Shown here piece after piece: positions 31,058-61,315 of a stretch of 64,000 nt of DNA (position 1 is the stretch's first letter; the number at the start of each line of letters is the position of its first letter). The stretch is from Variovorax beijingensis. GTDB taxonomy: Bacteria > Pseudomonadota > Gammaproteobacteria > Burkholderiales > Burkholderiaceae_C. The notes below the pieces were generated by a model. That model ran no database searches, had not been told where the DNA came from, and saw nothing but the letters and a program-made list of their open reading frames with translations. The position numbers and the translations under genes were made by a program. The stretch covers positions 682,001 through 746,000 of the forward strand of contig NZ_VIVL01000001.1 in NCBI RefSeq assembly GCF_007828835.1. The letters are read 5' to 3'.

Positions 31058-31447
31058 CTAGCCCATCAGGCTCACGTGCGCCGACACCACGCGCCAGCCC
31101 TCCGGCAGGCGCGCCCAGGTCTGGCTCTGGCGGCCCGTGCGGTCGCTGCCCGCGCGCCTGAACTCGACGTTCGCGACCGCAAAGTCCTGCCCGAAGGTGG
31201 TGATGGCCTTGGCGGTGATCTCGCGCTCGAGGTTGACCGCAGGCCGGCCCTGGCGGAACGCGCGTATCGCGTCATAGCCGTAGAGGTTCTCGCCGGCGCC
31301 GTAGCGCAGCGTGTGCGGCGAATCCCAGAAGAGCCTGTCGAGCACCGGCACGTCGTTGGTGACGAGCGCGCGTTCGTACTCGGCGAACGCGGCCTCGACT
31401 TCGGCGAGCACGGCGGGCAGGTTGATGTCGGTCATGGAAACGGTCAT
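31058..31447 (-). CDS. AtzH/HpxZ-like SnoaL-fold small protein (DUF3225)
   Basis: A 129-aa protein with the DUF3225 pattern: [39 protein letters not shown], and a C-terminal [20 protein letters not shown]. Relatives include AtzH, which works with AtzE in decarboxylating 1-carboxybiuret after cyanuric acid ring opening, and HpxZ of oxalurate catabolism. It is the last gene of the minus-strand operon that begins with a ring-opening amidohydrolase, so the family links agree. I chose the ATG at 31447 with GGAAAG upstream; 31435 is the alternative. Confidence 0.8.
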
Positions 31448-31455
31448 GGCTTGTC

Positions 31456-32232
31456 TTACTTTCCGCCCCAGTGGACGAAGCGCCGCTCCGCCACCAGGAA
31501 TACGAGGTTCATCACGTAGCCGAGCAGGCCCGCCGCGAAGATCGAGGCGTACATGTCGGGCATGTCGAAAATGGTCTGCGCGTTCATGATGCGCTGTCCG
31601 AGGCCATCGGTGGAGCCGATGAACATCTCGGCCACGATCACGATCACCAGTGCGATCGACACGCCCGAGCGCATGCCGACGAACACCTGCGGCATCGATT
31701 CGAGCAGGATCACGTCGGTCAGCACGCGCCAGCGCGGCGCGCCCATCACCTTGGCCGCGAGCTGGCGCTGCTTGCGCGCGCTCATCACGCCGTAGGCGAC
31801 GTTGAACAGGATGGCCAGCGCCGCGCCGAAGGCCGCGACCGCAATCTTGGTGGCCTCGCCGACGCCGAACAGCACCAGGAACAGCGGGAACATGGCCGAG
31901 GCCGGCGTCGAGCGGAAGAAGTCGATCGCGAACTCGATCGATTCGTAGATCTTCTCGTTCGACCCCAGCACGATGCCCAGCGGCACCGCGATCACGAGCG
32001 CAAGGCCGAAGGACGTGACGGTGCGCACGATGGTCTTGAAGAAGTCGCCCCACAGCGTGCCGTGCGCGAGGCCGTTCCAGAAGGCCGCGAGCGCCTCGAG
32101 CGGCGAGGGCAGCAGCACCGGGTCGACCGCGCGTGTCCCATGCACGAAGGCCCAGAGGCCGATCAGCGCGGCGATGCCGAACAGCGGCCGCAGGCGGGCG
32201 CCGAAGGCGTTGGCTCGATGGGCGAGGCTCAT
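31456..32232 (-). CDS. ABC importer permease (SsuC/TauC type)
   Basis: A 258-aa membrane protein with six helices and the BPD permease loop ([27 protein letters not shown]). It belongs to the nitrate/sulfonate/taurine-type permeases, which often carry pyrimidine precursors, urea-like compounds or aromatic acids. It overlaps the ATPase gene by 4 bases and lies 8 bases before the AtzH-like gene. Confidence 0.92.
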
Positions 32233-33071
32233 GGCTTGCGCACCTCCCGCTGGAACACGTCCAGCGCGCGGGTCTTGGTGGCGATGAAGGCCGGCGTGAT
32301 CGTGGTGTCGGCCGTGCGCGGGCGCGCCACGTCGAAGGGCAGGTTCTCGGCCACGCGCGTGGGCCGCTTGGTCAGCAGCAGCACCTCGTCGGCCAAGAGC
32401 ACGGCCTCGTCCAGGTCGTGCGAGACCAGCAAGGTGGTGGTCCGGCGTTCGACCAGCACCTTCTGCAGCCGCTCGCGCAGGAACATCACCATCTCGTAGT
32501 CGAGCGCGGAGAAAGGCTCGTCGAGGAACAGCACCTCGGGGTCGACCACCAGTGCCCGCATGATCGACACCAGCTGCTGCTGGCCGCCCGACATCTGGTA
32601 GGGGTAGCGCTGCAGGTCGAGCTTGACGTCGAAGCTCTCCATCAGCCTGTCCATGCGCGACTGCTGCTCCGCCTTCGACAGGTTCAGGTACTGCAGCGGG
32701 TAGCGGATGTTGTCGATCGCGCGCAGCCACGGGAACACCGCCTCGCGGTAGTTCTGGAACACGTAGCCGATGCGCGTCTCGCGCGCTTCCTTGCCCTCGA
32801 ACAGGATCTGGCCGCTGTCGCACGGCAGGATGCCCGCGATCATGTTGATCAGCGTGCTCTTGCCGCAGCCGTTGGGGCCGAACACCGACACGATCTTTCC
32901 CTTCGGAATGTCGAGGTCGAAGTTGTCGTAGATGGTCGCGTCCTGGAAGCGCTTGGTCAGCCCGCGGATCGTGATGTGCGTGCCCTTCGGGTACCAGCGG
33001 TGCGAGGCGCCGGCATCCGCGGCATCGGGCGCGGCGGTGCCGATCGGCAGATGGGTGCTCATGGTGCGCAT
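32229..33071 (-). CDS. ABC importer ATPase (SsuB/TauB type)
   Basis: A 280-aa ATPase. Walker A is GPNGCGKST, the signature is [12 protein letters not shown], Walker B is [12 protein letters not shown], and the switch His lies in [11 protein letters not shown]. About 35 residues precede the usual domain start. The ATG overlaps the binding protein stop by one base (TGATG). It energises the permease encoded next. Confidence 0.93.
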
Positions 33072-34078
33072 CAGAAGGCCCGCACCAGCGCCTTGCCGTC
33101 GATCCTGTCCTTGACCACGCCCAGCTCGGTGCCGATGTCGAGGAACTTCTGGAAGTCGCCCACATCGGCGGGGGTCATGTCCTTGGCCATCACGATGCGC
33201 GGCAGCGGCACGGTGGCGGCCAGTTCGGGCGGCACCTTCATGCCCTGCACCAGGTAGCCGCGCGCGCTGCTGTCGGCCTGCGCTTCCTTCACGCCGCGCG
33301 CCCAGGCGGCGGCGAAGCGCCTGGCCACGTCGGGCTTGTCGGCCATGAACCTGCCCGACATCACGGCGCCGGCCGCGAAGGCCGAGGCGCTCTTGTTGCC
33401 CAGCAGGTAGGTGGAGATCACGCCGGCCTCGATGCGCTTGCCGATCTTCTGCGCAACCATGATGGTGGCCGACGGCTCGAGCGTGTAGCCGCCGTCGAAG
33501 TTGCCCGACTGCAGCGCGCCCAGGTGCACGCCGATCTGCTGCTCCTGGATCGTGAAGTCGCGGCCTTCGGTCAGGCCCACCTTCCTGAGCACCGCGCGCG
33601 CCGCGCCGATGTTGGCGGGGCCGGGCGCCGAGAACAGCTTGAAGCCGTTCCTGAAATCCTTCAGCGTCCGCGCCGGGCTGTCGGCCTTGACGACGAACTG
33701 CTCGATCACGTGCTGCGCGTTCTGCCCGTTGAGCGAGATGTACTTCAGCGTGTTGGGCCGGCGCGATTCCATGTTGGCGCCTTCGAGCGTCACCAGGTTC
33801 ACCGCCGCGTCGATGCCGTTCGACACCAGCGCCTGCACGGTCAGCGGGTGGCTGGTCATGGGCACCTCCTCGATCTCCAGGTCGGCCTCCTTGAAGTAGC
33901 CGCGGTTCACGGCCACGTAGAACGGCAGTGCCGCGCTCGAGGGAAACACGCCGACCTTGATCCTGTCGGCCGCCTGGGCCGGCAGCACCGCGAACGCTGC
34001 GAGGACGAAGGCCGCGGCGCCGGCGAGACGGGCGGCGGCACGAAGGGGCGCGGCGAAGGAAAGCTCAGGGCGTGGCAT
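33071..34078 (-). CDS. ABC importer binding protein (NMT1/SsuA family)
   Basis: A 335-aa periplasmic protein with a long signal peptide (about 1-37, LPAQAAD). The mature part has the NMT1/THI5-like pattern: RIKVGVFPSSAALPFYVAVNRGYFKE, DAAVNLVTLEG, YTLEPSATIMVA. Members of this family bind thiamine precursors, pyrimidines, sulfonates or aromatic acids. Placed between the oxygenase and the transporter genes, it probably captures the compound degraded by this operon. It overlaps the VOC gene by 14 bases. Confidence 0.92.
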   Translation of the reverse strand: MPRPELSFAAPLRAAARLAGAAAFVLAAFAVLPAQAADRIKVGVFPSSAALPFYVAVNRGYFKEADLEIEEVPMTSHPLTVQALVSNGIDAAVNLVTLEGANMESRRPNTLKYISLNGQNAQHVIEQFVVKADSPARTLKDFRNGFKLFSAPGPANIGAARAVLRKVGLTEGRDFTIQEQQIGVHLGALQSGNFDGGYTLEPSATIMVAQKIGKRIEAGVISTYLLGNKSASAFAAGAVMSGRFMADKPDVARRFAAAWARGVKEAQADSSARGYLVQGMKVPPELAATVPLPRIVMAKDMTPADVGDFQKFLDIGTELGVVKDRIDGKALVRAF

Positions 34079-34610
34079 CGTGGGGTTCTCCGGAACGGGG
34101 TGGCGGGGTCAGGGCGGGATAGGCAAGCGGGTCGAAGAAGGAGCTGCCGGCGCGGTACACGCGCGCGGCCGACATGTCGGGCGGCGCGCCGTCTTCCACC
34201 GCGCCTTCGAAGGTGAGCTCGAGCTGCACGCCGCTCGGGTCGTAGACGAACAGCTGCCACAGCGTGGTGCCGGGCACGAGGAATTCGCGCCAGTCCAGCC
34301 CCGCGGCGCGAAAGCGCGCGACATAGGCGTGGTAGCCCGAGCAGGCCAGCGACACATGGTCGATGGCGCCGCTGCCGTGCGGCACCTGGCCGCCCTGGCC
34401 GAGCGCCGGGCCGCCGGCATAGACGTGGATGATGGCCTGGCCGCCCGGCTGTCCGCAGGCCAGCCATGCGCCGGGGTAGCCGAAGTCGGGCCGCGCGATC
34501 TCGCGCAGGCCGATCACGCCGGTCCAGAAGGCGCGGGTGCGGCCAAGGTCCGCGGTCTTGATCGCGAGATGGAAGAGGCCGTGCGTGATGGCGGCGTTCG
34601 TCGTTGTCAT
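34065..34610 (-). CDS. VOC (glyoxalase/extradiol dioxygenase fold) protein
   Basis: A 181-aa protein with two vicinal-oxygen-chelate repeats: HGLFHLAIKTADLGRTRAFW at the start, then IDHVSLACSGYHAYVARFR and LFVYDPSGVQLELTFEG. Candidate metal ligands are the His at about 14, the His in AIDHVSL and the Glu in LELTF. It could be a ring-cleaving dioxygenase or a lyase/isomerase acting after the monooxygenase. It is coupled to the monooxygenase gene by an ATGA overlap. Confidence 0.85.
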   Translation of the reverse strand: MTTTNAAITHGLFHLAIKTADLGRTRAFWTGVIGLREIARPDFGYPGAWLACGQPGGQAIIHVYAGGPALGQGGQVPHGSGAIDHVSLACSGYHAYVARFRAAGLDWREFLVPGTTLWQLFVYDPSGVQLELTFEGAVEDGAPPDMSAARVYRAGSSFFDPLAYPALTPPPRSGEPHDATP

Positions 34611-35821
34611 GGCGCAGGCACCGGCTCGCGCTGGCCCAGCGACACGTCGCGGAACAGGGTGGAAAGGTCGCCGAGGAACCCGGGCCCGGTCTTCCAGCGC
34701 GTTCCGGCCACCGGATCGGCGCCGGCCAGCATGGTGTCGGTGGCCGTGATCGACAGCGCCATCGCGAAGCGGATGCGCTCGCGCCGCGCGGCGTCCACCA
34801 GCGCCAGCCAGTCGCGCGGCGCCTGGCGGCCGGCGCGGATCTCGCGCTCGAGGATCAGCGCGGCGGCGCAGGCGTCCTCCATGGCCTGGGTCGCGCCCTG
34901 GCCCAGCGTGGGTGCCATGCCGTGGGCGCTGTCGCCCAGGTACATCACATTGAAATCGGCTTCGCCGAACAGCACGTCGGACTCCTGCATGCGGGCCCAG
35001 TGGCTGTGCGGCAGGTTGGCGCACATGGCGTCCATCAGCCATTGCACCTGCGCGCTCGGCGCACCCTGCGCGGGCCGGTAGGTGGCGCGCATCGTGGCTT
35101 CGGTCTTCCATTCGTCGCGCAGCGGCGCGCCGGGTTCGACCGGGTAGGTCGCCGCGATGTAGACATGCCCCGGCGGCACGCGGAAGGCCAGCAGCCGGTG
35201 CGGGCCGTTGAACCACTGGCCGTAGTCGTCGATCAGGCCGGCGCTGGTGTCGGGCACCAGCGTGCGCAGGATCGCCACGCCCACATGGCGCGGCTCGGGC
35301 AGGCCCGAGAACGCCGCACGGGTGGCGGAATAGCGGCCGTCCGCGCCGACCAGCAGGTCGATGTCGTCGATGCGGTGCTCGACGCCGCCCTGGACGTAGC
35401 GCACGGCGGTGCGTCCGCCGCCGCCCGTGGCCGCGGCGATCGACGCGATCTCGCAGCCATACCGGATCGCCGCGCCCGCGCCTTCGCGCAGCACGCGGTA
35501 GAGCTCCGACCAGCGGATGCGGATGCCGGGGTTGTCCGCCACCTGCGACAGCGGCAGGTCGAACAGCACCGTGCCGTCGGTCAGGGCGATCTGCCAGTGC
35601 TTCCACGGCAGGCTCGCAGCCTCGACCTCGGCGGCCAGCGCCGCGTCGCACAGGCGCAGCGCCTTGACCGCATTGGGGCCCACGTTGAGGCCGGTGCCGG
35701 CCTCGGAGTGGTCGTCGGGCCCGACGCGCTCCAGGCAATGCAGTTCGACGCCGGGCAGCGCGGCGAGCCGGCGGGCCAGGATGGCGCCGGCCACGCCGGC
35801 TCCGATGATCACGATCTTCAT
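34607..35821 (-). CDS. FAD-dependent aromatic/heterocycle monooxygenase
   Basis: A 404-aa class A flavoprotein monooxygenase. FAD-binding GAGVAG is at 7-12, the DG motif (GADGRYSATR) is at about 159-168, and the GD motif (YLGDSAHGMAPTLGQGA) is at about 294-310. Relatives include HpxO urate hydroxylase, salicylate hydroxylase and 6-hydroxynicotinate 3-monooxygenase. Substrate unknown. Its position after a ring-opening amidohydrolase gene suggests hydroxylation of a nitrogen heterocycle before opening. The ATG overlaps the 56-aa ORF stop by 4 bases. Confidence 0.92.
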   Translation of the reverse strand: MKIVIIGAGVAGAILARRLAALPGVELHCLERVGPDDHSEAGTGLNVGPNAVKALRLCDAALAAEVEAASLPWKHWQIALTDGTVLFDLPLSQVADNPGIRIRWSELYRVLREGAGAAIRYGCEIASIAAATGGGGRTAVRYVQGGVEHRIDDIDLLVGADGRYSATRAAFSGLPEPRHVGVAILRTLVPDTSAGLIDDYGQWFNGPHRLLAFRVPPGHVYIAATYPVEPGAPLRDEWKTEATMRATYRPAQGAPSAQVQWLMDAMCANLPHSHWARMQESDVLFGEADFNVMYLGDSAHGMAPTLGQGATQAMEDACAAALILEREIRAGRQAPRDWLALVDAARRERIRFAMALSITATDTMLAGADPVAGTRWKTGPGFLGDLSTLFRDVSLGQREPVPAP

Positions 35822-35988
35822 GCGGATGAGGTCTCGCTGAGAGGCGCCGCCGCGGCAGGCGCGCGACGCCGGTGTTGCCGGGGATGGCGTTGTTCGAAGG
35901 CGTGGCCGGTGGCGTGCATGGTGGGTGCGGTCACCTGCAGGATGCGTACCAAGTCCGCGCCGGCATCGGTTTGCAAGCGTGCTGTCAT
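35818..35988 (-). CDS. Translationally coupled 56-aa small ORF
   Basis: This fills the gap between the amidohydrolase and monooxygenase genes. Its ATG overlaps the amidohydrolase stop (ATGA at 35985-35988) and its TGA overlaps the monooxygenase ATG (ATGA at 35818-35821). The product starts MTARLQTDAGADLVRILQV and has a basic, Arg/His-rich middle and an Ala/Ser-rich tail. About 41 of 56 codons end in G or C. No family is recognised; it does not look like AtzG. The double overlap is the main evidence that it is translated. It may serve only to carry ribosomes across the gap. Confidence 0.45.
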   Translation of the reverse strand: MTARLQTDAGADLVRILQVTAPTMHATGHAFEQRHPRQHRRRAPAAAAPLSETSSA

Positions 35989-37151
35989 GCCGCGTGCGCG
36001 ATCACCGCGACCAGTCCGCCGCCGTCCGGCCCCTGGTGCTCGGCGCCGCCCGAAACGAAGATGCGCGCGTCCCCCAGCACGCCGGCCACCATGCCGCCGA
36101 CCGCGCCGCGGATGTGGCGCTGGGCATTGATGTCGGTGTCGTCGAGCATGGTGTGGCGCAGGCCGCGCACGTGGCCGCGGCGGTCGGGCTCGCACTTGAC
36201 GAACACCGCCGCCACCCGTGCTGCATCGGCCGCGCTCAGCTGGGGCGCCGCGTTCATGCCCAGCGGCCGCAGCGCCTCGGCCACCGCGCCGATGTCCAGC
36301 GCGTCGCGCATCGGTGCGCAGGCCATGCGCAGCGTGCCTTCCCATGCCGCGCTGTGGCCGAGCACGATCACTTCGTTGGCCTCGACCTCGATGCCCGACG
36401 AAATGCTCGCACGGCGGGAGAAGCGCTCGAAGTCGGCCCCCATCGCGGCCTCCAGCGCCGGGTCGTCGGGCAGCTCGCCCAGTGCGATCGCCACGCCGAA
36501 AGCGCCGGCGGCACGCGCCGCCGCCATCGAGCGACCCGAGTCGGCGGTCAGCACCGTGTGGCCGGCCGCGGTGGCGGCCTGGGCGCGCGCGGCCGTCACG
36601 CAGGGGCACTTGACCTGCACGAAGGCCACGTCCTCGGCGCGGGCGATGCCGGCGCCGCGCATCGCCTCGCGCACCGCGCCGGCCACCGACGCCACCTGCG
36701 CCCAGCGCCCGACATGCTGCGCGGGCAGCGGCGCGCTGACGGCCGTGCCGATCGCCAGTGCGCCCGGGCCGGGCCCTGCGGCCGCGGCGGGCTGCCCGGT
36801 GCGCGCGAACACCACGTAGTGCGGGCTCAGCACACCCTCGGTGCCGCCCGACAGGATGCAGGGCAGCTCGCGCAGCAGTTCGGCGGCCGGCCGGCCCAGC
36901 CGCGCGGCCAGCAGGCTCATCAGCGTCTGGGTGAAGTAGCCGCGCGTGAAGTCGTTGACACCGCCATTGCCTTCGGTCTTGCCGATCACGGCTACCACCT
37001 GGGCGGGCTCGATCACGCCCTCGTCGAACAGCGCGGCGAGCGCCGAGAGGTCGCCCGGATGGGCCATCGGCAGGCGGTGCACGGCCAGTTGCGGGCGCGT
37101 GGCAGCCTGCGTTGGCGCGGTGCCTGGGGGAAGGAGGGTGTGGGCGTCCAT
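35985..37151 (-). CDS. Ring-opening amidohydrolase (cyanuric acid hydrolase/barbiturase family)
   Basis: A 388-aa enzyme of the rare AtzD/TrzD/barbiturase fold, made of three related domains each giving a Lys-Ser pair. Likely pairs are K58 (IGKTEGNGG) with S101 (SGGTEG), K181 (VQVKCPC) with S251/S252 (SISSGIEVE), and K319 (FVKCEPD) with S367 (FVSGGAEHQGP). The C-terminal HTMLDDTDINAQRHIRGAVGGM block is also typical. Known members hydrolyse cyanuric acid or barbiturate. Which one, or another cyclic imide, cannot be decided here. It is the first structural gene behind a LysR regulator and an upstream palindrome. Confidence 0.9.
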   Translation of the reverse strand: MDAHTLLPPGTAPTQAATRPQLAVHRLPMAHPGDLSALAALFDEGVIEPAQVVAVIGKTEGNGGVNDFTRGYFTQTLMSLLAARLGRPAAELLRELPCILSGGTEGVLSPHYVVFARTGQPAAAAGPGPGALAIGTAVSAPLPAQHVGRWAQVASVAGAVREAMRGAGIARAEDVAFVQVKCPCVTAARAQAATAAGHTVLTADSGRSMAAARAAGAFGVAIALGELPDDPALEAAMGADFERFSRRASISSGIEVEANEVIVLGHSAAWEGTLRMACAPMRDALDIGAVAEALRPLGMNAAPQLSAADAARVAAVFVKCEPDRRGHVRGLRHTMLDDTDINAQRHIRGAVGGMVAGVLGDARIFVSGGAEHQGPDGGGLVAVIAHAA

Positions 37152-37210
37152 GGATGCTGCGGTGCAACAGATGAACGCAGTATGGGCAGCCGGGGTGCAA
37201 ACCTCCAGCG

Positions 37211-37240
37211 CAATGTTTCGCTCGGACCGAGCGCAAATTG
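37211..37240. promoter_or_regulatory. Palindromic operator candidate upstream of the amidohydrolase operon
   Basis: CGCTCGG-A-CCGAGCG (37219-37233) is a perfect 7+1+7 palindrome, and CAAT and ATTG flank it roughly symmetrically at 37211-37214 and 37237-37240. It lies 60-90 bases upstream of the amidohydrolase start, the usual distance for a LysR activator site, and just after the LysR gene. Confidence 0.5.
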
Positions 37241-37288
37241 TGTGCAGTGCGCGATTCGCCGCCTTGACGGCGCGCGCCCCCGGGCCGC

Positions 37289-38194
37289 TCAGCCCGGCAA
37301 CGCTGCCAGCCGGTTGACCAGCGTTTCCATGAACGACAGCGTGGCGATCGGCAGCATGCGGCCGGCGCGCGCCGCCAGCACCAGCTGGCTGTGCGCCAGC
37401 GCCCGGTCCGACAGCGGGATCGATACCAGCTCGCCGCGCCGCACCTCGTTGAGCGTGCCGATCTGGAACTGGAAGCTGATCGCGCCCGTCTGCCGCGTGA
37501 ACTCCTTGAGCGTCTGCACGGTGCTGGCCTCCAGCGCGACCTGCAGCGCGATGCGCGAGCGCGCCATCACGTCGTCGAGCAGCCGCCGGCTGCCGAACGA
37601 CCGGTCGCCCAGCGCCACGGTGTATTTCTGGCAATCGGCCAGCCGCAGCGTGGCGCGCTTCGCCAGCGGGTGGTCGGGCCGCAGCATCGCGCACAGCGGC
37701 TGCGCGATCGCGCTGATCACGCGCAGCGTCTCCGAGGGCTGCGGGTCGTGCACCAGGATCAGTTCCACATCGTCGGCCATCAGCGACGCGACCAGGTTGC
37801 CCGTCACGCCCGAGACGATCTGGAACTGCACGCCCGGGTGCGTCTGCTGGTAGTGCGCGATGGTGCCGGGGATCAGGTCGGTCGCGACCGATTCGGCGCA
37901 GCCGATGCGCACCGTGCCGCGCACCAGCCCGCGCAGTTGCTCGATCTGCGACTCGGCCGAGCGCATGTCGGCCATGCTGCGCCGCACCGCGGTGATCAGC
38001 ACCTCGCCCGCTGCCGTGAGGCGCACGCCGCGCGGCAGGCGCTCGAACAGCGGCGTGCCGATGTCGGACTCGATCTCGAGGATCTTGCGGTTGAGCGCCG
38101 TCGAGGCCACGTGCAGCTTCTCGGCCGCCTTGCGGATCGACCCCGCGCGCGCGACGGCATCGAGGTAGACGAAGTGGCGAGGCGGATGCAGCAT
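37289..38194 (-). CDS. LysR-family regulator of the heterocycle operon
   Basis: A 301-aa LTTR. The N-terminal helix-turn-helix (AGSIRKAAEKLHVASTALNRKILEIE) is followed by an effector domain (about 90-295, GTVRIGCAESVATDLIP). It lies directly upstream of the amidohydrolase gene on the same strand, with 137 bases between holding a palindrome. The ATG at 38194 gives normal family length; an in-frame ATG at 38230 is possible. Confidence 0.88.
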   Translation of the reverse strand: MLHPPRHFVYLDAVARAGSIRKAAEKLHVASTALNRKILEIESDIGTPLFERLPRGVRLTAAGEVLITAVRRSMADMRSAESQIEQLRGLVRGTVRIGCAESVATDLIPGTIAHYQQTHPGVQFQIVSGVTGNLVASLMADDVELILVHDPQPSETLRVISAIAQPLCAMLRPDHPLAKRATLRLADCQKYTVALGDRSFGSRRLLDDVMARSRIALQVALEASTVQTLKEFTRQTGAISFQFQIGTLNEVRRGELVSIPLSDRALAHSQLVLAARAGRMLPIATLSFMETLVNRLAALPG

Positions 38195-47343: not shown

Positions 47344-48096
47344 ATGGCCCTCGATCCTCTCCATGCGCTGCAAGGCGCGAACCGCGCAGCATTGCCCGCT
47401 GCGGCGGCAGGCGCCGGCACGCTGCTGATGGCCGGCGCGACCGGCGCCTTGGGCCAGGAGCTGCTGCGCCGCCTGGCGGGCAGCCACCGCTTCGCCCATG
47501 CGCGCGTGCTGGCGCGCGAGCCCATCCGCGACGGGCTGCGCGGCGTTGAAACCTACCTCGCCCCCGGCCTGCCGATCGCGCAATGGCCGCTGGCATCGGC
47601 CGACAGCGCGGTCATCGCCTTCGACCCGCCGCGGCTCTACCACGACCGCGAACGCGCGCTCTGGGTGCCGCAGCCTTCGGACCTGCCCGAGCTCGCGCGC
47701 TGGCTGCGCGCCTGCGGCGTGCAAACGCTGGCCATCGTGCAGCCGCACGACCAGGGCAGGCTGCCCGAGGCACTCAAGCGCGGCCTTGCGAGCCTCGACG
47801 AGCAGGCCGTGGTCGCCAACGGCTTCGACCGCGTGATCCTCGTGCGCTCGGCGCGCAAGCCGCTCAACGCAAAGTTCGCCAACCCCGCCGAAAGGCTCGC
47901 GGCGTGGATGCTCTCCATCGTGCGCTTCATGGTGCCGACGAGCGAGCAGCCGGTGCGCGCGTCGAAGGTGGCCGAGCTGGTCGACCTGGCGCTGCGCATC
48001 GCGCCGCCGGGTGTGCACGTGGCGGCGCCGGAGCTGGTGTGGGAGGCTGCGCAGGGCGACATGCAGGCCGTGGCGCGCCGCTGGCTCCAGCCCTAG
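47344..48096 (+). CDS. Atypical SDR-like Rossmann-fold protein
   Basis: A 250-aa protein with one clear Rossmann start (TLLMAGATGALGQELLRRL, TGxxGxxG pattern at about 26-44). No SDR Tyr-x-x-x-Lys catalytic pair is obvious. It resembles NAD(P)H-binding YwnB/HTATIP2-like oxidoreductases. Its TAG stop shares the CTAG tetranucleotide with the convergent permease stop at 48093-48096. Function not known. Confidence 0.7.
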   Translation: MALDPLHALQGANRAALPAAAAGAGTLLMAGATGALGQELLRRLAGSHRFAHARVLAREPIRDGLRGVETYLAPGLPIAQWPLASADSAVIAFDPPRLYHDRERALWVPQPSDLPELARWLRACGVQTLAIVQPHDQGRLPEALKRGLASLDEQAVVANGFDRVILVRSARKPLNAKFANPAERLAAWMLSIVRFMVPTSEQPVRASKVAELVDLALRIAPPGVHVAAPELVWEAAQGDMQAVARRWLQP

Positions 48097-48911
48097 CCGA
48101 AACGCAGCGAGCGCAGCCCCACGGTGCGGTCGACCCAGACGACGGCCACCAGCGTGACCACGATGCTCACCGTCGACACGGCCGCAGCCGTCGGGTCGAA
48201 GTCCCAGCGCAGGTAGTCGAACAGCTGCAGCGGCAGTGTCGTCATGCCGATGCCCTTGAGCAGCAGGGACATGTTGAACAGGTCGAACGAGATCACGAAC
48301 GCGAACAGCGCGCCCGTGATGATGCCCGGCTTGATCAGCGGCAGCGTCACGCGCACGAAGGCCCGCCACGGCGAAGCGCCGAGGCTGCGCGCGGCCTGCT
48401 CCAGCGAGCCGTCCTGGTTGTAGAGCGACGACGCGACGTTGGTGAACACATAGGGCAGCGTGACCAGTACGTGGCCCACCAGCAGCCCGAACATCGTGCG
48501 CGTGCCGACGCCGCTCGCGTACAGGAAGAACAGCAGCGCGATCGCCGTGAGGATCTCGGGCAGCATGAGCGGCAGCATCAACAGCATGCGCAGGCCCTCG
48601 CGCAGCCGCGTGGCATGGCGCACCACGTAGAGCGCGCCAGCCACGCCGATCACGGTCGAGCACACGGTCGCGATTGCCGCCACCTGCAGCGAGGTGCCGA
48701 TGGCGCGCATGAAGGCCTCGTTGGCGAACAGCGCGCCGAACCAGCGCAGCGAGATGCCCTGCGGCGGAAAGGTCAGGAACTCGCCTGCGTTGAGCGACAT
48801 CAGCACGATCACCGCGATCGGCAGCAGCAGGAACACGTAGACCGCGCCGACGTACGCCAGGCCCATGGCATCGGCCACGCGTGTGGCCAGGGGCTTGCGC
48901 TTCGTTCTCAT
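48093..48911 (-). CDS. ABC importer permease (PotC/YdcV type)
   Basis: A 272-aa membrane protein with six helices and the permease loop EQAARSLGASPWRAFVRVTLPLIKPGI. It is the second permease of a spermidine/putrescine-type importer and overlaps the first permease gene by 4 bases. The substrate could be a polyamine or another small organic cation or acid. Confidence 0.92.
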   Translation of the reverse strand: MRTKRKPLATRVADAMGLAYVGAVYVFLLLPIAVIVLMSLNAGEFLTFPPQGISLRWFGALFANEAFMRAIGTSLQVAAIATVCSTVIGVAGALYVVRHATRLREGLRMLLMLPLMLPEILTAIALLFFLYASGVGTRTMFGLLVGHVLVTLPYVFTNVASSLYNQDGSLEQAARSLGASPWRAFVRVTLPLIKPGIITGALFAFVISFDLFNMSLLLKGIGMTTLPLQLFDYLRWDFDPTAAAVSTVSIVVTLVAVVWVDRTVGLRSLRFG

Positions 48912-49813
48912 TGCAGGCCCTTCATGAAGTGCCCGGTGAGGCGAGCATAGACCCACACCGCCACCATGCCGCAGGCCGAGAGCACCAGCGCCTGCGCTGC
49001 ACCGGTGGGCCATTGGAAGTTGTCGATCAGGTTCTGCACCACGAGCACTGACATCGTCTTGACCTGCGCGCCGCCCAGCATCACCGGCGTCACGTAGGCG
49101 CTCAGCGTGAGCACGAACACCAGGACCGTGCCCGCCTGGATGCCGGGCCACGACATCGGAAGAACGAGCCGCCAGAACACCTTGAACCGGGAGGCGCCGA
49201 GCGAGCGCGCGGCCTGCTCCAGCGTCGGGTCGATGCTCTGGATCACACCCACCAGCGGCAGGATCATGAACGGCAGGAACACATGCACCAGCGCGACTGT
49301 CACGCCCAGGCGGTTGTTCATGAGCTGCAGCCCGGTCTCGACCAGCCCGAGATCGATCAGCACGCGGTTGATCACGCCGTTGCCCGACAGCAGGATCAGC
49401 CAGCCGAAGCTGCGTACCACCACGCCCACCAGGAGCGGCGACAGCACCAGCACATACAGCAGGCTGCCCCAGCGCGAACGCGTGCGCGCCAGGTGGTAGG
49501 CCACGGGGTAGCCCAGCAGCAGGCAGATGGGCACGGTCGTCGCGCCGAGCACAAGCGTGTCGGCCAGCACGCCGAGGATGTAGCCGTCGCCGAGCGCATG
49601 GGCGTAGTTGCCGAGCGTGAAGCCCGCGCCATAGGGTGCCCCCACGGCCGTGGGCCGCAGGCTCATGGCGATGATGTTCAGGTAGGGCAGCACCAGGAAC
49701 ACGCCGATCAGCACCAGCGCCGGTGCGATCAGCCAGAACGCGCCGCGTCCCGGGCGCGCCTTGCGCCGGGCGCTGCTGCGCGGCGGCGCTTCGGCTGTCA
49801 TCACGGCGCTCAT
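48908..49813 (-). CDS. ABC importer permease (PotB/YdcU type)
   Basis: A 301-aa membrane protein with about six helices and the loop EQAARSLGASRFKVFWRLVLPMSWPGI. The start at 49813 (MSAVMTAEAP) gives normal length, with a weak SD. It pairs with the permease encoded next and the ATPase encoded before it. Confidence 0.92.
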   Translation of the reverse strand: MSAVMTAEAPPRSSARRKARPGRGAFWLIAPALVLIGVFLVLPYLNIIAMSLRPTAVGAPYGAGFTLGNYAHALGDGYILGVLADTLVLGATTVPICLLLGYPVAYHLARTRSRWGSLLYVLVLSPLLVGVVVRSFGWLILLSGNGVINRVLIDLGLVETGLQLMNNRLGVTVALVHVFLPFMILPLVGVIQSIDPTLEQAARSLGASRFKVFWRLVLPMSWPGIQAGTVLVFVLTLSAYVTPVMLGGAQVKTMSVLVVQNLIDNFQWPTGAAQALVLSACGMVAVWVYARLTGHFMKGLQ

Positions 49814-49835
49814 TGGCGCACCCTTGGCGCTGCGC

Positions 49836-50947
<1,112 letters not shown>

Positions 50948-50951
<4 letters not shown>

Positions 50952-51994
50952 TTCATCTCCCGGTTCCAGCGGTCGGTGATGGCCGCGACCTGCGGGTTCA
51001 CCTTGGCCCAGTCGAACTGGAAGATCGACTTCATGCGGTCCCCGCTCACCGGCACGTCCTTGGCAAGGTCGGGCGAAAGCTTCGACCGGGTGTTGGTCGG
51101 CGAGGTGAAGAACTCCTTGGCCATCATTTCCTGCACGTCGGGGCGCAGGATGAAGTCGAGGTACTTGTAAGCCTCTTCCTTGGCCGGCGCATTCTTCAGC
51201 ACGTTGAACGACTGTTCGAAGGCCAGCACGCCCTCGGTGGGCACCACCATCTCCACGGGCACGCCCTTTTTCTGCAGGGCCACGATCTCGGGGAAGTCGA
51301 TCACCGCCACCGTCACGTCGCCGCGCGTGAGCATGGTCGACAGGGTGCCGCTCCAGTCGGCCTGCGTGAACGGCAGGAGCTTCTTGATCTCGGTGAAGGC
51401 GCGGTCGATCGCGTCCTGCGAGCCGCCGTAGAGCTTGGCCGTCATCAGCAGGAACAGCATCGCGGCCGTGTTGCCGATCTGGTAGAGGCCGATCTTGCCC
51501 TTGAACTCGGGGTTGCTCCACAGGTCCGACCACGCCTTGGGCGGTGTCTTCACCAGGTCCTTGCGGTAGCCGATGCCGATGGTCGAGACAATGCCGCGCA
51601 CCCCGTTGTCCTCGGCATTGCGCAGGATCGGGTACACGCTTGCGAGGTTGGGCACCTTGGCCGCGGGAATGGGCTCGAAGTAGCCTTCGGCACGCACCAG
51701 GCTTGCGATGTTCTCGTTGACCATCAGGATGCTGTAGGGCGGCTTCGCAACGCCGGCTGCGCGCAGGTTGGCCACGAAGTTCTTGCCCAGGCCAACGTCG
51801 AGCGTGGTTTCCACGCCGGCCGATTTCATGAACGTGGGCATCAGGTCGGAGCGCCAGAATTTTTCCCAGCGTCCGCCGTAGGTGTTGACGACGAGGTTCT
51901 GCGCGGCGAACGACATGCCCGGCATCGCGAGTGCGGACATGCCGGCTGCGGCGGCCATGGCTTGCAGGCAGTCGCGGCGGGAGAAGGCTTTCAT
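50948..51994 (-). CDS. ABC importer binding protein (PotD-like, family 1)
   Basis: A 348-aa exported protein with a signal of twin-arginine appearance (FSRRDCLQAM, about 5-14) and AlaGlyMet-rich hydrophobic core. The mature protein has the periplasmic polyamine-binding-like pattern (LVVNTYGGRWEKFW, DVTVAVIDFPEIVALQKKGVPVEMVVPTEG). It lies 40 bases behind an oxygenase gene on the same strand, so the ligand may be that enzyme's substrate rather than a polyamine. Confidence 0.9.
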
Positions 51995-52034
51995 GGTTGC
52001 GTCCTGGGAAGAGAAGAAAAGAAGAAGAGGCCGT

Positions 52035-53009
52035 TCAGGTGTTCGCCGGCTTGCGGTAGGCGTAGTTCTTGTCGAGCCTCTCGAGCAGGTACTCGCCGTA
52101 GGACACCGGCTCGTAGCGGGGCGGATGCTGCGCGTCGGTGCAGGTCGGCAGGCATTCGATCAGCGCGTCCATGCCGGGGTCGAGAAAGTAGGGCAGCGAA
52201 TAGCGGTCGCCCCCCGAGCGGTTGATGACGCGGTGCGGCGTGGACACGAAGCGGTCGTTGGTCCAGCGCGCGAGCATGTCGCCGACGTTGAGCACATAGG
52301 TGTCCGGAATCGGCGGCGCCTCGATCCAGTCGCCGCCGCGCGGTCGCACCTGCAGGCCCCCGGAGTCGTCCTGCGCGAGCAGCGTGATGATCCCGTAGTC
52401 GGTGTGGGGCGCCGAGCCCATCTGGTCGTCTTCGACCGGCGGCTGCGGGGGATAGTGCAACGCGCGCAGGAAGGTGGTGGGGTGGTCGAAGTGGTGGTCG
52501 AGCGCGGTGGCCTCCAGGCCCAGGCTCATCGCGATCAGGCGCACGATGTAGCGGCCGAGTGCGTCGACCTCGCTCACGTACTGCGTCATGGCGGGTTTGA
52601 AGCCCGGCAGCCATCCGGGCCACTGGTTCGGCCCCTGCATCGGCAGGCCGGCGAGAAGGCCTGCGTCGTCCGGCGGCAGTTCGTGCATGAGCATCAGCGA
52701 TTCGCTCATGTTGGGCCTGGTGACCCTGGCCACCGACGAGGTCACGATGGTCGAGGTGGCCATGCCCATGTAGCCGCGATGGAAGGCATTGATCGCGAGG
52801 GAGCGCTTTTGCTCGAGGGTGGAGGCGTGGAACTCGCGCGAGGCCGCAAAGGCCGCGTCGCGCGTGGCGCGCTGTACGGTGTGTCCCGAGATGTAGGCAA
52901 AGCCGATGGTGCTCAGCGCTTCGTGAAGCTGCAGGGCCGCCTTCCTGGCAGAGGGAACGCCCGGGTCGAGGTTGCCGCCAAGGTCGACGAGGGGAATGGA
53001 GTTCAGCAT
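52035..53009 (-). CDS. Isopenicillin-N-synthase-family Fe(II)/2-oxoglutarate oxygenase (1)
   Basis: A 324-aa double-stranded beta-helix oxygenase. The N-terminal DIOX_N part (IPLVDLGG, GFAYISGHTV) is followed by the catalytic domain. Iron ligands are H202 and D204 (APHTDYG) and H259 (TPHRVIN), and the 2-oxoglutarate-binding RxS is R269-S271. The family includes thymine 7-hydroxylase and plant hydroxylases. It lies 5 bases after the isochorismatase gene and is a distant paralogue of the oxygenase at 59257. Substrate unknown. Confidence 0.9.
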   Translation of the reverse strand: MLNSIPLVDLGGNLDPGVPSARKAALQLHEALSTIGFAYISGHTVQRATRDAAFAASREFHASTLEQKRSLAINAFHRGYMGMATSTIVTSSVARVTRPNMSESLMLMHELPPDDAGLLAGLPMQGPNQWPGWLPGFKPAMTQYVSEVDALGRYIVRLIAMSLGLEATALDHHFDHPTTFLRALHYPPQPPVEDDQMGSAPHTDYGIITLLAQDDSGGLQVRPRGGDWIEAPPIPDTYVLNVGDMLARWTNDRFVSTPHRVINRSGGDRYSLPYFLDPGMDALIECLPTCTDAQHPPRYEPVSYGEYLLERLDKNYAYRKPANT

Positions 53010-53014
53010 CGGTG

Positions 53015-53719
53015 TCAGCGAATCGGGTTGACGGAAGAACGGAGGCCGCCGCGCCATCGGCCCAGCAGCTCGTGCGAGTCCATGACCAGCCCCAGGTGCA
53101 GCGACACCATCGCAAGCGCCGCGCCTTCCAGATGCGCATCGGTGCCGCGCACCAGGTCGCGCAATACGATCACGCGGTAGTTGCGGTTGCTGGCGTCGAA
53201 GGCGGTGTTGAGCACGCAGCAGTCGGTGAAGCCGCCGTTGAGCACCACCGTCTCGATGCGCTGGTTGCGCAGCAGGAAGTCGAGATCGGTCGGGTAGAAG
53301 GCCGAGAGGCGCCGCTTGCTGTCCACGCGCATGTCGCCGGGCGCAACGCGCGTGACCCACTCGGTCCACTTCGAGCCTTCGATGGCGTGCGCGTCGGCAT
53401 TCGGTATTGCGCCCACGTGCAGCGGAAAGGTGCGCCGCCATGCGGACGGAATGCCGTGGACGTCGTCCACGCCGCCGGGCCGCAGCACCGACCTGATGTG
53501 CACGATGCGCACGCCCAGCGCGCGCACCGCGTCATGGAAGGTGTCGATGGGCGCCACCACGTCGCGCGCCCGCGGGGCGGGGCAGGGGCAGTCGGGGCTG
53601 TCGTCCAGGTGGCCCCGGTGCATGTCGATGGACACGACCGCGGTGGTGGCCGGGTCCAGGTAGTCGGCGAACTGCGCCGCGTCGAGCTCGCGCTCCTCGT
53701 TGTAGACCCAGGCCTTCAT
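53015..53719 (-). CDS. Isochorismatase-fold cysteine hydrolase
   Basis: A 234-aa hydrolase with triad candidates D32 (SIDMHRGH), K135 (DSKRRLSAF) and C168 (GGFTDCCVLN). The family includes RutB (ureidoacrylate hydrolase), biuret hydrolase and N-carbamoylsarcosine amidase, so a carbamoyl or amide C-N bond is the likely target. It has an inserted loop at about 80-118 compared with RutB and differs clearly from the rutB at 63711. It overlaps the permease gene by 4 bases. Confidence 0.88.
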   Translation of the reverse strand: MKAWVYNEERELDAAQFADYLDPATTAVVSIDMHRGHLDDSPDCPCPAPRARDVVAPIDTFHDAVRALGVRIVHIRSVLRPGGVDDVHGIPSAWRRTFPLHVGAIPNADAHAIEGSKWTEWVTRVAPGDMRVDSKRRLSAFYPTDLDFLLRNQRIETVVLNGGFTDCCVLNTAFDASNRNYRVIVLRDLVRGTDAHLEGAALAMVSLHLGLVMDSHELLGRWRGGLRSSVNPIR

Positions 53720-54648
53720 CGGCGTTCTTCCCGCACATAGGGTTGGCCCAGCGCACCGGGTTCTTCGTCGGCGCCGCGCCGCGAGAGCGCGACCCACACC
53801 ATCACCCCGAGCGTCACCGCATAGGGCGTCATCATCACGAAGTACTGCGGCAGCTGCACGCCGGCCGCCGCGAGCTGCGGGATCAGCGCCTCGATGCAGC
53901 CGAACAGCAGTGCGCCCGCGAGCGCCTTCCACGGCGACCAGCGCGCGAAGATCACCAGCCCCACCGCGATCCAGCCGCGCCCGCCGGTCATGCCCGCGAT
54001 CCACAGCTTGGTGCTGACCACCGAGATGTATGCGCCCGCCAGTCCCACCAGCGCCGAGCCCGCGAGCACCGCGGCCAGCCGCCACATGGCAACGCGGATG
54101 CCGGCCGCATCGGCCGCCTGCGGGTTCTCGCCCACCGCGCGCAACCGCAGCCCGGCCGAGGTGCGCGAGAAGAACCACGCCACGGCAAGGAAGATCGGCA
54201 GCGTGAGCCAGACCATCGCGTTCTGCTCGAACAGCCGGCCGGCGCCGGGCAGGAGCGACAGCGGCCACAGCGCCATCGCGCCGATGCCCTCGGTGGCATG
54301 GTTGGTCCATTCGGCCAGCGAGCCGACCAGTGCCGTGAGGCCCTGGCAGAAGAACACCAGCGCGAGCCCCGCGATCACCTGGTTCACGCGCAGCCAGATC
54401 ACCATCACCGCGAACAGCAGCGACACCGCACTGGCCGCGAGCATCGCCAGCACCAGCGACACGGCCGGCTGCCCCATGGCAAGCTGCGCGCCGATGCCCG
54501 CGAGCGCTCCGACCAACATCAGCCCTTCGGCGCCGAGCGACAGCACGCCCGCGCGCTCGCTGATGATCAGGCCCAGCGCCGCGAGCGCATAGGGCACCGC
54601 GAAATCGGGCGTGCTCGCGAGCCAGTTCAGCACGATGCCGCCGCTCAT
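53716..54648 (-). CDS. BMP-type ABC importer permease (second)
   Basis: A 310-aa membrane protein with eight to nine helices (YALAALGLIISERAGVLSLGAEGLMLVGA, VNQVIAGLALVFFCQGLTAL, ENPQAADAAGI). This is the YufQ/NupQ-like permease class of BMP-dependent importers, which carry nucleosides or nucleobases in characterised cases. It overlaps both neighbours by 4 bases. Confidence 0.92.
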   Translation of the reverse strand: MSGGIVLNWLASTPDFAVPYALAALGLIISERAGVLSLGAEGLMLVGALAGIGAQLAMGQPAVSLVLAMLAASAVSLLFAVMVIWLRVNQVIAGLALVFFCQGLTALVGSLAEWTNHATEGIGAMALWPLSLLPGAGRLFEQNAMVWLTLPIFLAVAWFFSRTSAGLRLRAVGENPQAADAAGIRVAMWRLAAVLAGSALVGLAGAYISVVSTKLWIAGMTGGRGWIAVGLVIFARWSPWKALAGALLFGCIEALIPQLAAAGVQLPQYFVMMTPYAVTLGVMVWVALSRRGADEEPGALGQPYVREERR

Positions 54649-55796
54649 TGCACAGCCTCCGCACCCACGCGCCGCAGCCGATGGCGAATGAAGAAATCGC
54701 TGGCCGCCACGCACACCACGATGATGGCCTGGATCAGCTGCACCATCGAGAACGGCACCTGGTAGAACACCTGCAGGCTGCGGCCGGTGACGAACAGCGC
54801 CGCCACCAGCAGCGCCACCACGGTGGCCGCGAGCGGGTTGTTGCGCGCAAGAAAGGCAATCAGGATGCCCGAGAAGCCGTAGCCCTGGTAGAAGGCCTGC
54901 GTGAGCCGCCCTTCCTGCCCGGCGGCCACCGCAAGGCCCGCGAGCCCGGCCATCGCGCCCGACAGCAGCACGGCGCCGTAGATGGTGCGGCGCACCGGCA
55001 CCCCATTGGCATGCGCCACGCGCGGATTGGCATCGACGAAGCGCAGGTACAGCCCGGCGCGGCTCAGGCCCACCAGCCACCAGGCGAAGAGCGCCACCAC
55101 GGCCGCGAGCACGATGGCGCTGCTCACGCCGGCGCCCAGTTCGGGCAGCCGCTCGAAGGCGCGGAACTGCGGCGAATAGGGAAAGTTGTCCTTCGGGTCC
55201 TTCCAGCTGCCATAGACCAGGTGCAGCAGGAAGTTGGCCGCCATGTAGTTGAGCATCAGCGTGGAAATGATCTCGTTCACGCCGAGCCTGATCTTCAGCC
55301 ACGCCGGCCCCAGCACCCAGAGCAGCCCGCAGCCGATGGCGGCCGCGAACATCAGCGGCAGGCGCAGCGGCTCGGGGCCGATCTGCCACATCGAGACGGC
55401 CGTCGCGCCGATGGCACCCCAGATCATCTGGCCCTCGAGCCCCAGGTTCCAGAAGCGCGCGCGAAACGCCAGCGAGCCGGCCATGCCCACGAGGACCATG
55501 GGTGCGGCCTGGAACAGCACGGCGCGCAAGTTCTGGCCGTCGAAGAAGGTCTGCATCACGAACTCGTTGGCGAGCTCGTTGGCGGGAACGCCGGCCGCCA
55601 CCAGGATGGCGGCGGAAATCGCAAGGCCGACGAGGAGCGCCGCCGCAAGGATCAGCGCCTGCCGCCGCCATCCCATGTGCTGGCGGATTTCCAGCGCATA
55701 GCGTCGGCGCGCCAGCGGCTGGCGCCGCGCCCGGAGCGCGGCCTCCGGATCGGTCTGCGCCGGCTGCGCGATGGCCGCGAGCGTGGCGTCAACCAT
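54645..55796 (-). CDS. BMP-type ABC importer permease (first)
   Basis: A 383-aa membrane protein with about nine helices after a basic leader of about 45 residues (FRARFWNLGLEGQMIWGA, GVNEIISTLMLNYMA, GLAVAAGQEGRLTQ). It is YufP/NupP-like. ATG at 55796 overlaps the ATPase stop by 8 bases; the longer frame to 55856 lies in the ATPase gene. Confidence 0.92.
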   Translation of the reverse strand: MVDATLAAIAQPAQTDPEAALRARRQPLARRRYALEIRQHMGWRRQALILAAALLVGLAISAAILVAAGVPANELANEFVMQTFFDGQNLRAVLFQAAPMVLVGMAGSLAFRARFWNLGLEGQMIWGAIGATAVSMWQIGPEPLRLPLMFAAAIGCGLLWVLGPAWLKIRLGVNEIISTLMLNYMAANFLLHLVYGSWKDPKDNFPYSPQFRAFERLPELGAGVSSAIVLAAVVALFAWWLVGLSRAGLYLRFVDANPRVAHANGVPVRRTIYGAVLLSGAMAGLAGLAVAAGQEGRLTQAFYQGYGFSGILIAFLARNNPLAATVVALLVAALFVTGRSLQVFYQVPFSMVQLIQAIIVVCVAASDFFIRHRLRRVGAEAVQ

Positions 55797-57321: not shown

Positions 57322-57333
57322 CGGGCGGCCTGC

Positions 57334-60463: not shown

Positions 60464-61186
60464 ATGCCGAAGACCAAGGCGCTGGCCGCAGCCAGCAGCA
60501 CCAAGAAGAAGATCCCGGTGAAGGGCCCGGCGCGCGAGCGCGCGAAGCCCGCCGTGCGCAGCGCGTCCGCGGTGAGCCGCAGGCTGCGCCAGATCGAGGA
60601 CAAGCGCAGCGCCATCCTGGGCGCCGCGCTGGGCCTGTTCTCGCGCTTCGGATTGCATGGCACGTCGATCGACCAGGTGGCGGCGCGCGCCGATGTGTCG
60701 AAGAGCAACCTGCTCTACTACTTTGCCAACAAGGAAGAGCTGTACGTCAACGTGCTGCGCGACCTGCTCGCGCTGTGGCTCGAGCCGCTGCGAGGCTTCA
60801 GCGCCGAGCAGGATCCGGGCGAAGCCATCGGCGGCTACATCCGCCGCAAGCTCGTGGTCTCGCGCGACCGGCCCGATGCATCGCGCCTGTTCTGCCTCGA
60901 AATGATCCAGGGCGCGCCGCTCTTGCGCGACGAGCTCGACCGCGAACTGCGCACGCTGGTGGAGCGCAAGTCGGAGGTCATCCGTTCATGGATCGCCGCC
61001 GGCAAGCTCGCGCCGGTCGATCCGCACCACCTGATCTTCGCGCTCTGGGCCATCACGCAGCACTACGCCGATTTCGGCGTGCAGGTGCAGGCGCTGACGG
61101 GGCATACGCTCGAAGACCCGGCCTTCTTCGAGCAGACGGTGGAGAACGTGCAGCGCATCGTGCTGCAGGGCATCACGCCGCGTTAG
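60464..61186 (+). CDS. rutR: Pyrimidine-responsive TetR-family regulator RutR
   Basis: A 240-aa regulator. A basic N-terminal extension of about 40 residues precedes the TetR helix-turn-helix (GLHGTSIDQVAARADVSKSNLLYYFANKEEL). The C-terminal ligand domain matches RutR (RPDASRLFCLEMIQGAPLL, FALWAITQHYADFGVQVQALTG). It represses rut genes until uracil or thymine binds. It is convergent with rutF, not part of the rut operon, and diverges from the oxygenase gene. Confidence 0.92.
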   Translation: MPKTKALAAASSTKKKIPVKGPARERAKPAVRSASAVSRRLRQIEDKRSAILGAALGLFSRFGLHGTSIDQVAARADVSKSNLLYYFANKEELYVNVLRDLLALWLEPLRGFSAEQDPGEAIGGYIRRKLVVSRDRPDASRLFCLEMIQGAPLLRDELDRELRTLVERKSEVIRSWIAAGKLAPVDPHHLIFALWAITQHYADFGVQVQALTGHTLEDPAFFEQTVENVQRIVLQGITPR

Positions 61187-61193
61187 GGAGTTG

Positions 61194-61293
61194 CTCCCTC
61201 CCCTTCCGGGGGAGGGCAGGGGTGGGGGCAAGCGGCGTACCTGTTGGGCGCTCTGCAAGCCCCCATCCCAACCTTCCCCCAGAGGGGAAGGAG
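61194..61293. repeat. Palindromic repeat copy 4 between convergent rutR and rutF
   Basis: Same orientation and ends as the copies at 39367 and 41152: CTCCCTCCCCTTCCGGGGGA at the left, TTCCCCCAGAGGGGAAGGAG at the right, inner GGGGTGGGGGC and GCCCCCATCCC. It begins 8 bases after the rutR stop and ends 22 bases before the rutF stop, where its hairpins could terminate both transcripts. Confidence 0.85.
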
Positions 61294-61315
61294 CCATGCA
61301 AACGCCCCGGGACGG

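What the first reader, a model, noticed from the sequence alone, without database searches (positions are those of the whole stretch)
31058..38194. Candidate new heterocycle-degradation operon around an AtzD/barbiturase-family enzyme
One minus-strand unit with almost continuous overlaps joins a LysR regulator, a ring-opening amidohydrolase, a 56-aa ORF, an FAD monooxygenase, a VOC protein, an NMT1/SsuABC importer and an AtzH/HpxZ-like protein. Ring-opening amidohydrolases are rare and known to act only on cyanuric acid and barbiturate. A coupled flavin monooxygenase and VOC protein are not part of the atzDEF route, and no atzE or atzF gene is visible. The set could make a barbiturate-like ring by hydroxylation and then open it, feeding a ureido acid to later enzymes. 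The seen part is gene content and overlaps; the substrate is inference.
Basis: partly seen in the sequence, partly recalled or inferred. Interest (0 to 1): 0.75.

Follow-up and report, generated by a model that had tools for sequence, protein, structure and literature searches.

The report
Uncharacterised nitrogen-ring-opening operon
A soil bacterium carries a gene set that probably imports, oxidises and then opens a nitrogen-containing ring; its ring-opening enzyme belongs to a distinct, untested branch of the small family known for cyanuric acid and barbiturate, and matters as a possible natural role for that family.

Summary
The operon is real: LysR, an AtzD/barbiturase-family enzyme (CAH), a 56-aa ORF, FAD monooxygenase (FMO), VOC protein, NMT1-type importer, AtzH/HpxZ-like protein. 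The CAH lies in a clade (29 of 56 tree rows, 100/100) apart from five reference enzymes and the R. leguminosarum CAH. All 71 aligned clade rows (69 distinct) carry Gln where cyanuric acid hydrolases have Thr321 and barbiturase has His; 70 of 71 replace the last Pro of the published CAH motif by Leu. FMO lies within the fetched locus in 63 of 69 relatives (58 of 61 loci of 12 kb or more; VOC 47, amidase 44, Mo-hydroxylase large subunit 18). In 399 family genomes FMO was found in exactly the five with this CAH type. In 21 of 69 relatives an amidase gene sits between CAH and FMO; the 56-aa ORF is its deletion remnant here. The other genes stay under purifying selection. Most likely: an uncharacterised route in which FMO hydroxylates a pyrimidinedione-like ring that the CAH-type enzyme opens, an amidase elsewhere finishing. 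Substrate and order are inference.

The parts
37289..38194 (-). LysR-type regulator
   Evidence: PF00126 and PF03466 over cut-off; a close LysR in 30 of 61 relative loci of 12 kb or more
35985..37151 (-). AtzD/barbiturase-family (Toblerone-fold) ring-opening amidohydrolase of a distinct clade; K58/S101, K181/S251, K319/S367 pairs and R70, R213, R348 kept; Q344 and L380 diagnostic
   Evidence: residue roles from passages of PMC4051656 and PMC3758960; residue mapping by alignment and constant offset
35818..35988 (-). 56-aa ORF: remnant of a deleted amidase gene, ATGA overlaps at both ends
   Evidence: 40-nt in-frame match, 82.5%, E 2.9e-7, to the amidase of L017; starts and ends where the amidase starts and ends in relatives
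34607..35821 (-). FAD-dependent class A monooxygenase (FMO), HpxO/NicC-like fold
   Evidence: PF01494; model pLDDT 94.1; best fold matches HpxO and NicC, nearly tied by E-value
34065..34610 (-). VOC metalloprotein; likely metal ligands H14, H62, H85, E131
33071..34078 (-). NMT1/THI5-like substrate-binding protein
   Evidence: PF13379 and PF09084
32229..33071 (-). ABC transporter ATPase
   Evidence: PF00005
31456..32232 (-). ABC transporter permease
   Evidence: PF00528
31058..31447 (-). AtzH/HpxZ-like NTF2-fold protein; Y24 and R48 match AtzH Tyr22 and Arg46
   Evidence: PF11533, NF033625, alignment to 6bjt (numbering calibrated on the R73K entry 6d63), residue roles in passages of PMC6219798

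Best explanation
An operon for uptake and oxidative catabolism of a nitrogen heterocycle, most likely a pyrimidinedione (barbiturate-like) ring. Proposed order: the NMT1-type ABC importer brings in the ring; in Bradyrhizobium and some Acetobacteraceae a neighbouring Mo hydroxylase adds ring oxygen; the FAD monooxygenase hydroxylates an electron-rich ring carbon (C5 in a barbiturate-type ring); the CAH-type enzyme opens the hydroxylated cyclic imide by its Lys-Ser mechanism; an amidase and, where present, the AtzH-like protein cut the opened ureide. The VOC metalloprotein acts on the hydroxylated or opened product. In this Variovorax lineage the amidase gene is deleted; an amidase encoded elsewhere would have to serve. 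Shown: gene content, conservation, distinct clade, altered specificity residue, amidase remnant, purifying selection. Inferred: substrate, order of steps, role of VOC, rescue of the amidase step.
For: FMO in 58 of 61 long CAH loci; of 16 contexts of other PF09663 copies only one (L152) has it, a stretch that also spans the clade operon of that genome. FMO in exactly the 5 of 399 family genomes with this CAH type. Clade of 29 rows 100/100 on a stem of 0.757; with the clade set by identity to the window (53% or more; all other rows 51% or less), Q344 in 71 of 71 and L380 in 70 of 71. Of 20 genomes with a clade copy, 12 hold a second PF09663 gene, by my reading 8 of them canonical. Three Lys-Ser pairs and Arg kept, as for a three-carbonyl ring (PMC4051656). 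FMO fold like HpxO, incl. the uric acid complex 3rp7 (TM 0.78). Mo hydroxylase large subunit in 18 of 61 long loci. dN/dS 0.01-0.21 for all eight genes against L010 and L011.
Against: No substrate or activity is known for any member. NCBIfam's equivalog model for cyanuric acid amidohydrolase accepts the protein (471 bits, cut-off 360). The fold search does not single out HpxO: NicC follows at 3.8e-25 against 2.7e-25, and other flavin hydroxylases reach the same TM-score; by sequence profile NicC ranks first; the HpxO model is missed (72.5 against 500). VOC is missing in 14 of 61 long loci; L030 and L032 have CAH and amidase without detectable FMO, and L072 has only a short FMO match of 133 bits. 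A close AtzH is in only 21 of 61. Sixteen of the 70 loci are Bradyrhizobium (titles), so the counts are not independent. Five Acetobacteraceae members lack one of the ring-binding Arg (Val).
Confidence: 0.42

Rival explanations
1. An ordinary cyanuric acid hydrolase operon (atzDGEHF-like) with unrelated oxidative genes beside it.
For: NF052395 471 bits over its cut-off of 360; AtzH-like gene in the operon; the two Arg said to mark CAHs against barbiturases are kept (PMC9118981).
Against: Fails the published CAH motif at its last Pro and has Gln at Thr321 (motif in PMC9118981, residue in PMC3758960). Separate 100/100 clade. FMO conserved in 58 of 61 long loci but not seen in canonical contexts. 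A second, canonical copy coexists in 8 of 20 genomes (with the trees).
Confidence: 0.12
2. A barbiturase of the oxidative uracil pathway: a Mo enzyme makes barbiturate, the CAH-type enzyme opens it directly, and FMO and VOC act on another branch.
For: Mo hydroxylase large subunit in 18 of 61 long loci. At I56, G64, P97 and F365 the clade agrees with barbiturase 5hwe and differs from nearly all of 20 canonical CAHs.
Against: None of the five barbiturase specificity residues (N, H, K, V, S) is present. FMO is kept more strictly than the Mo enzyme (58 against 18 of 61). No close Mo large subunit in this genome (best 39%).
Confidence: 0.18
3. A pyridine route: FMO makes a trihydroxypyridine or similar ring, and the CAH-type enzyme opens its imide to an amide that the amidase cuts.
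For: NicC is the best profile match of FMO and nearly tied with HpxO by fold. Genes with an isochorismatase domain (nicotinamidase-like by recall) and an aspartate dehydrogenase lie next to four Bradyrhizobium loci.
Against: NicC His47 is replaced by an Asn invariant in 58 sequences. A ring with only two imide carbonyls would leave one conserved Arg-Ser-Lys set without a partner (inference). AtzH-like genes, where present, point to ureides.
Confidence: 0.17
4. The operon is decaying in this lineage after loss of the amidase and has no present function.
For: The amidase is reduced to a 56-aa remnant in the window and the five other close genomes.
Against: The other eight genes are open and full length, with dN/dS of 0.01-0.21 between strains that share the deletion. 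The remnant keeps an open frame up to the FMO start in the strains translated.
Confidence: 0.07

Closest known systems
atzDGEHF cyanuric acid operon of Pseudomonas sp. ADP (PMC6219798)
   Same: Ring-opening Toblerone-fold enzyme and an AtzH with both catalytic residues; many relatives also have an amidase.
   Different: FMO, VOC and an NMT1 importer are present; no atzF in the operon (atzG was not searched for); the one relative amidase scanned (L015) scores 183.2 against 425.75 for the AtzE model; Gln at Thr321.
Barbiturase of Rhodococcus erythropolis (PDB 5hwe; organism from recall and PMC3758960)
   Same: Same family and Lys-Ser sets; shares I56, G64, P97, F365.
   Different: 39.7% identity; none of the five barbiturase specificity residues.
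HpxO, FAD-dependent urate hydroxylase
   Same: Top fold match of FMO (E 2.7e-25, TM 0.76-0.78), nearly tied with NicC.
   Different: 20% identity; far below the HpxO model cut-off.
NicC, 6-hydroxynicotinate 3-monooxygenase
   Same: Best sequence-profile match of FMO (E 8e-24).
   Different: His47 replaced by an invariant Asn.

Membership tests
AtzD/barbiturase (Toblerone-fold) family, PF09663 | Family profile over cut-off | tested here: met
   433.5 bits against 25
AtzD/barbiturase (Toblerone-fold) family, PF09663 | Three Lys-Ser pairs and three Arg around the ring (PMC4051656) | tested here: met
   K58/S101, K181/S251, K319/S367, R70, R213, R348
Cyanuric acid hydrolase | NCBIfam equivalog NF052395 | tested here: met
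   471 against 360
Cyanuric acid hydrolase | Motif SGGxExQGPxGGGP (PMC9118981) | tested here: not met
   SGGAEHQGPDGGGL; Leu in 70 of 71 clade rows, Pro in 20 of 20 canonical ones
Cyanuric acid hydrolase | Specificity residues R195, T321, R325, G345, G346 (PMC3758960) | tested here: not met
   R, Q, R, G, G: four of five; Gln at 321 in 71 of 71 clade rows
Cyanuric acid hydrolase | Hydrolysis of cyanuric acid | not testable with these tools
   needs purified enzyme
Barbiturase | Specificity residues N, H, K, V, S/A (PMC3758960) | tested here: not met
   R, Q, R, G, G
atzDGEHF-type operon | AtzE and AtzF in the operon | tested here: not met
   Only a 56-aa amidase remnant; no allophanate hydrolase in the operon, one at G000 C3:591112
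atzDGEHF-type operon | AtzG | not tested
   no search made
AtzH (DUF3225) | Family profile and Tyr22, Arg46 | tested here: met
   PF11533 206.6 bits; Y24 and R48 align with them
HpxO urate hydroxylase | NCBIfam equivalog NF033623 | tested here: not met
   72.5 bits against 500
NicC | His47 (mutated in 8uiq/8uiv; catalytic role recalled) | tested here: not met
   Asn46 in FMO, invariant in 58
VOC superfamily | Glyoxalase fold | tested here: met

The most novel reading that the evidence does not exclude
A third substrate class for the Toblerone-fold enzymes and a new catabolic route for pyrimidine-like rings: a flavin hydroxylase first marks the ring (for example barbiturate to its 5-hydroxy form), and only the hydroxylated ring is opened by the Gln321-type enzyme. 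This would give a natural role to a family otherwise explained mainly by man-made s-triazines.
Probability: 0.38. Interest if true: 0.75.

Novelty: new variant of a known kind. Interest (0 to 1): 0.57.

Why it matters
[quoted passage not shown] A widespread clade (69 relative loci in one species-level collection) with a changed specificity residue and strongly conserved oxidative partners makes that question directly testable. It also shows that automatic annotation as cyanuric acid amidohydrolase may mislead.

Tried and rejected
Searched for the missing amidase elsewhere: the closest own-genome amidase (53% to the L015 amidase) lies beside TRAP-transporter-like genes (gene names by reading). 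It is 38.8-59.5% identical to the 46 locus amidases, about as near as ten of these are to the L036 one (47-63%), so a stand-in role is possible but not supported by context. A close Mo hydroxylase in this genome was not found (best 39%).

Literature: no paper describing this operon was seen in searches of an open-access library, whose lists were partly capped. The key survey (Seffernick 2012) is not held. Of PMC4051656, PMC9118981, PMC6219798 and PMC7662398 I saw passages; of PMC3758960 passages and section 12; all others only as search listings. Peat's group V, with an inactive member, was considered: its position 321 is Gly, Arg or Trp, not Gln.

Errors and limits of mine: the AtzD numbering printed by the script is off by one or two after residue 85; one search uses window positions that reproduce the paper's residues for AtzD and barbiturase. 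One search picked its clade by Leu or Val at position 380, which made its Leu count circular; one search sets the clade by identity and gives the same 71 rows (69 distinct over a 240-residue core). One search ended in an error in its last line, after the results used. In one search the group label caught only 11 rows, so its label table is not used; only the tree is (29 clade rows and 27 others, counted by me from the Newick string). In one search the comparison with the own-genome amidase used a wrong frame; one search replaces it. The quick tree held two very long rows (L101, L102), left out. Four of the 69 loci (L017, L072, L077, L078) gave no full CAH row and were not residue-tested. Fold matches of VOC do not tell its reaction.
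Full report
What is there. The finding lies in a 6.94-Mb genome (G000) whose close relatives are Variovorax. The minus-strand unit runs LysR, CAH, 56-aa ORF, FMO, VOC, substrate-binding protein, ATPase, permease, AtzH, with overlaps from CAH to permease; families are confirmed. The CAH is the only PF09663 match in this genome.

The 56-aa ORF is a scar. In 44 of 61 long relative loci an amidase gene (PF01425, 305 bits for L015) lies in or near the unit; in 21 of 69 it lies between CAH and FMO, in most Bradyrhizobium loci that have it after VOC. In the window that place holds 171 bases that begin like the amidase, end just before FMO, and keep an in-frame 40-nt stretch 82.5% identical to the amidase of L017 (E 2.9e-7). 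Of 101 genus genomes, 12 carry FMO; the six with FMO at 96% or more (window included) have the scar, three others have the amidase, and in the three with FMO at 42-45% identity no amidase was seen in the 1.5-kb flanks. A longer version of the remnant in L011 and L172 fits stepwise deletion. The other eight genes show dN/dS of 0.01-0.21 against L010 and L011, which share the scar, and 0.08-0.44 against L036, L167 and L018 (L018 gave no AtzH match). The operon therefore seems to be in use without its own amidase.

Conservation. The scan of one collection gave 70 loci; one (L066) is canonical. Of the other 69, FMO is found within the fetched stretch in 63, VOC 49, amidase 45, substrate-binding protein 42, LysR 30, AtzH 22, Mo hydroxylase large subunit 19. 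Restricted to the 61 loci of 12 kb or more: 58, 47, 44, 40, 30, 21, 18. FMO did not pass the threshold in L030, L032, L072 (long) and L060, L061, L078 (short); L072 has a 133-bit match. Sixteen of the 70 loci are Bradyrhizobium, so the counts are not independent. Of 16 contexts of other PF09663 copies (15 fetched stretches and L066) FMO occurs in one, L152, which also spans the clade operon of the same genome. In 399 family genomes, 17 hold PF09663; five hold the clade type, and exactly these five hold FMO at E 1e-40 or better (only four candidates per genome were scored).

The enzyme. The careful tree of 56 rows puts all 29 clade rows together (100/100, stem 0.757), apart from AtzD, TrzD, Moorella, Azorhizobium and Rhizobium CAHs and barbiturase. 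At the specificity positions of Peat et al. (PMC3758960), AtzD reads R-T-R-G-G, barbiturase N-H-K-V-S and the window R-Q-R-G-G. With the clade set by identity to the window (lowest 53.1%; highest other row 51.0%), Gln is fixed in 71 of 71 rows (69 distinct), while 19 of 20 canonical rows have Thr and one Ser; the last Pro of the CAH motif of PMC9118981 is Leu in 70 of 71 and Val in one, Pro in 20 of 20 canonical rows. Five Acetobacteraceae members have Val in place of the first Arg. Eleven columns nearly separate clade from canonical sequences; at I56, G64, P97 and F365 the clade agrees with barbiturase. None of Peat's six groups is described with Gln at 321. Of 20 genomes with a clade copy, 12 hold a second PF09663 gene: by the trees 8 canonical and 3 of a second type (below), and by its score one distant.

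Partners. FMO folds like HpxO and NicC, nearly tied by E-value (2.7e-25 and 3.8e-25), with higher TM for HpxO (0.76-0.78 against 0.70) but equal TM for other flavin hydroxylases; the model is good (pLDDT 94.1). NicC's His47 is an invariant Asn here. An Arg (R209) is invariant in 58 sequences; I recall that HpxO uses an Arg (R204) to bind urate, but the two were not aligned here. VOC has a glyoxalase fold and conserved H14 (90% or more), H62, H85, E131; that these are metal ligands follows from recalled glyoxalase I. The Mo enzyme resembles aerobic CO-dehydrogenase-type large subunits (945.5 bits, just under a cut-off of 950, for L048). AtzH keeps Tyr22 and Arg46 (PMC6219798). The same genome has a second AtzH (60%), ATPase (69%) and permease (55%) next to an allophanate hydrolase, which could take ureide products further.

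Mechanism and limits. Neighbouring purine genes (urate oxidase in L042 and an OHCU decarboxylase/HIU hydrolase fusion in L027, both with a copy of the other by gene cluster; PuuE-like, below its model's cut-off, in Pseudacidovorax L014) and an isochorismatase-domain gene in four Bradyrhizobium loci point in more than one direction. I rate a pyrimidinedione-type ring most likely.

Verdict. A real, conserved, untested operon type, a new variant around a known enzyme family; the specific chemistry is open.

Noticed in passing
window 60464-63998: Rut uracil-degradation genes: rutR (+), and rutF, rutE-like, rutD, rutC, rutB (cut by the window end) on the minus strand, about 23 kb from the finding.
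   Followed up: partly
L045 15110-16189, L053 15057-16121, L056 15051-16109, L057 near 15018, L055 4800-5900, L152 near 7926: A second CAH type beside the clade operon: in L045, L053, L056, L057 both genes lie in one operon with FMO, in L055 in tandem, in L152 about 11 kb apart. In the tree five of these rows (L057 not included) group with barbiturase (100/96, long branch); four of four aligned have Glu at position 321.
   Followed up: partly
L153 6756-7790, L154 6503-7552: A third, distant PF09663 type (about 34% identity) with two of the three active-site Ser replaced (Ala, Phe). Neighbours by reading only: Rieske oxygenase-, nitrilase-, isochorismatase- and PuuE-like genes; in L153 also a ureidoglycolate-lyase-like gene (weak match, 36 bits against 230) and a second FMO (40%).
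   Followed up: partly
window 48093-58443: Two ABC transporter sets, an isochorismatase-like hydrolase (53015-53719) and an isopenicillin-synthase-like gene, possibly a nucleoside or ureide cluster (names from reading; the two enzymes were scanned, the second without a match).
   Followed up: no
L151 2885-7783: Paralogous AtzH, ABC transporter and allophanate hydrolase cluster in the same genome.
   Followed up: partly
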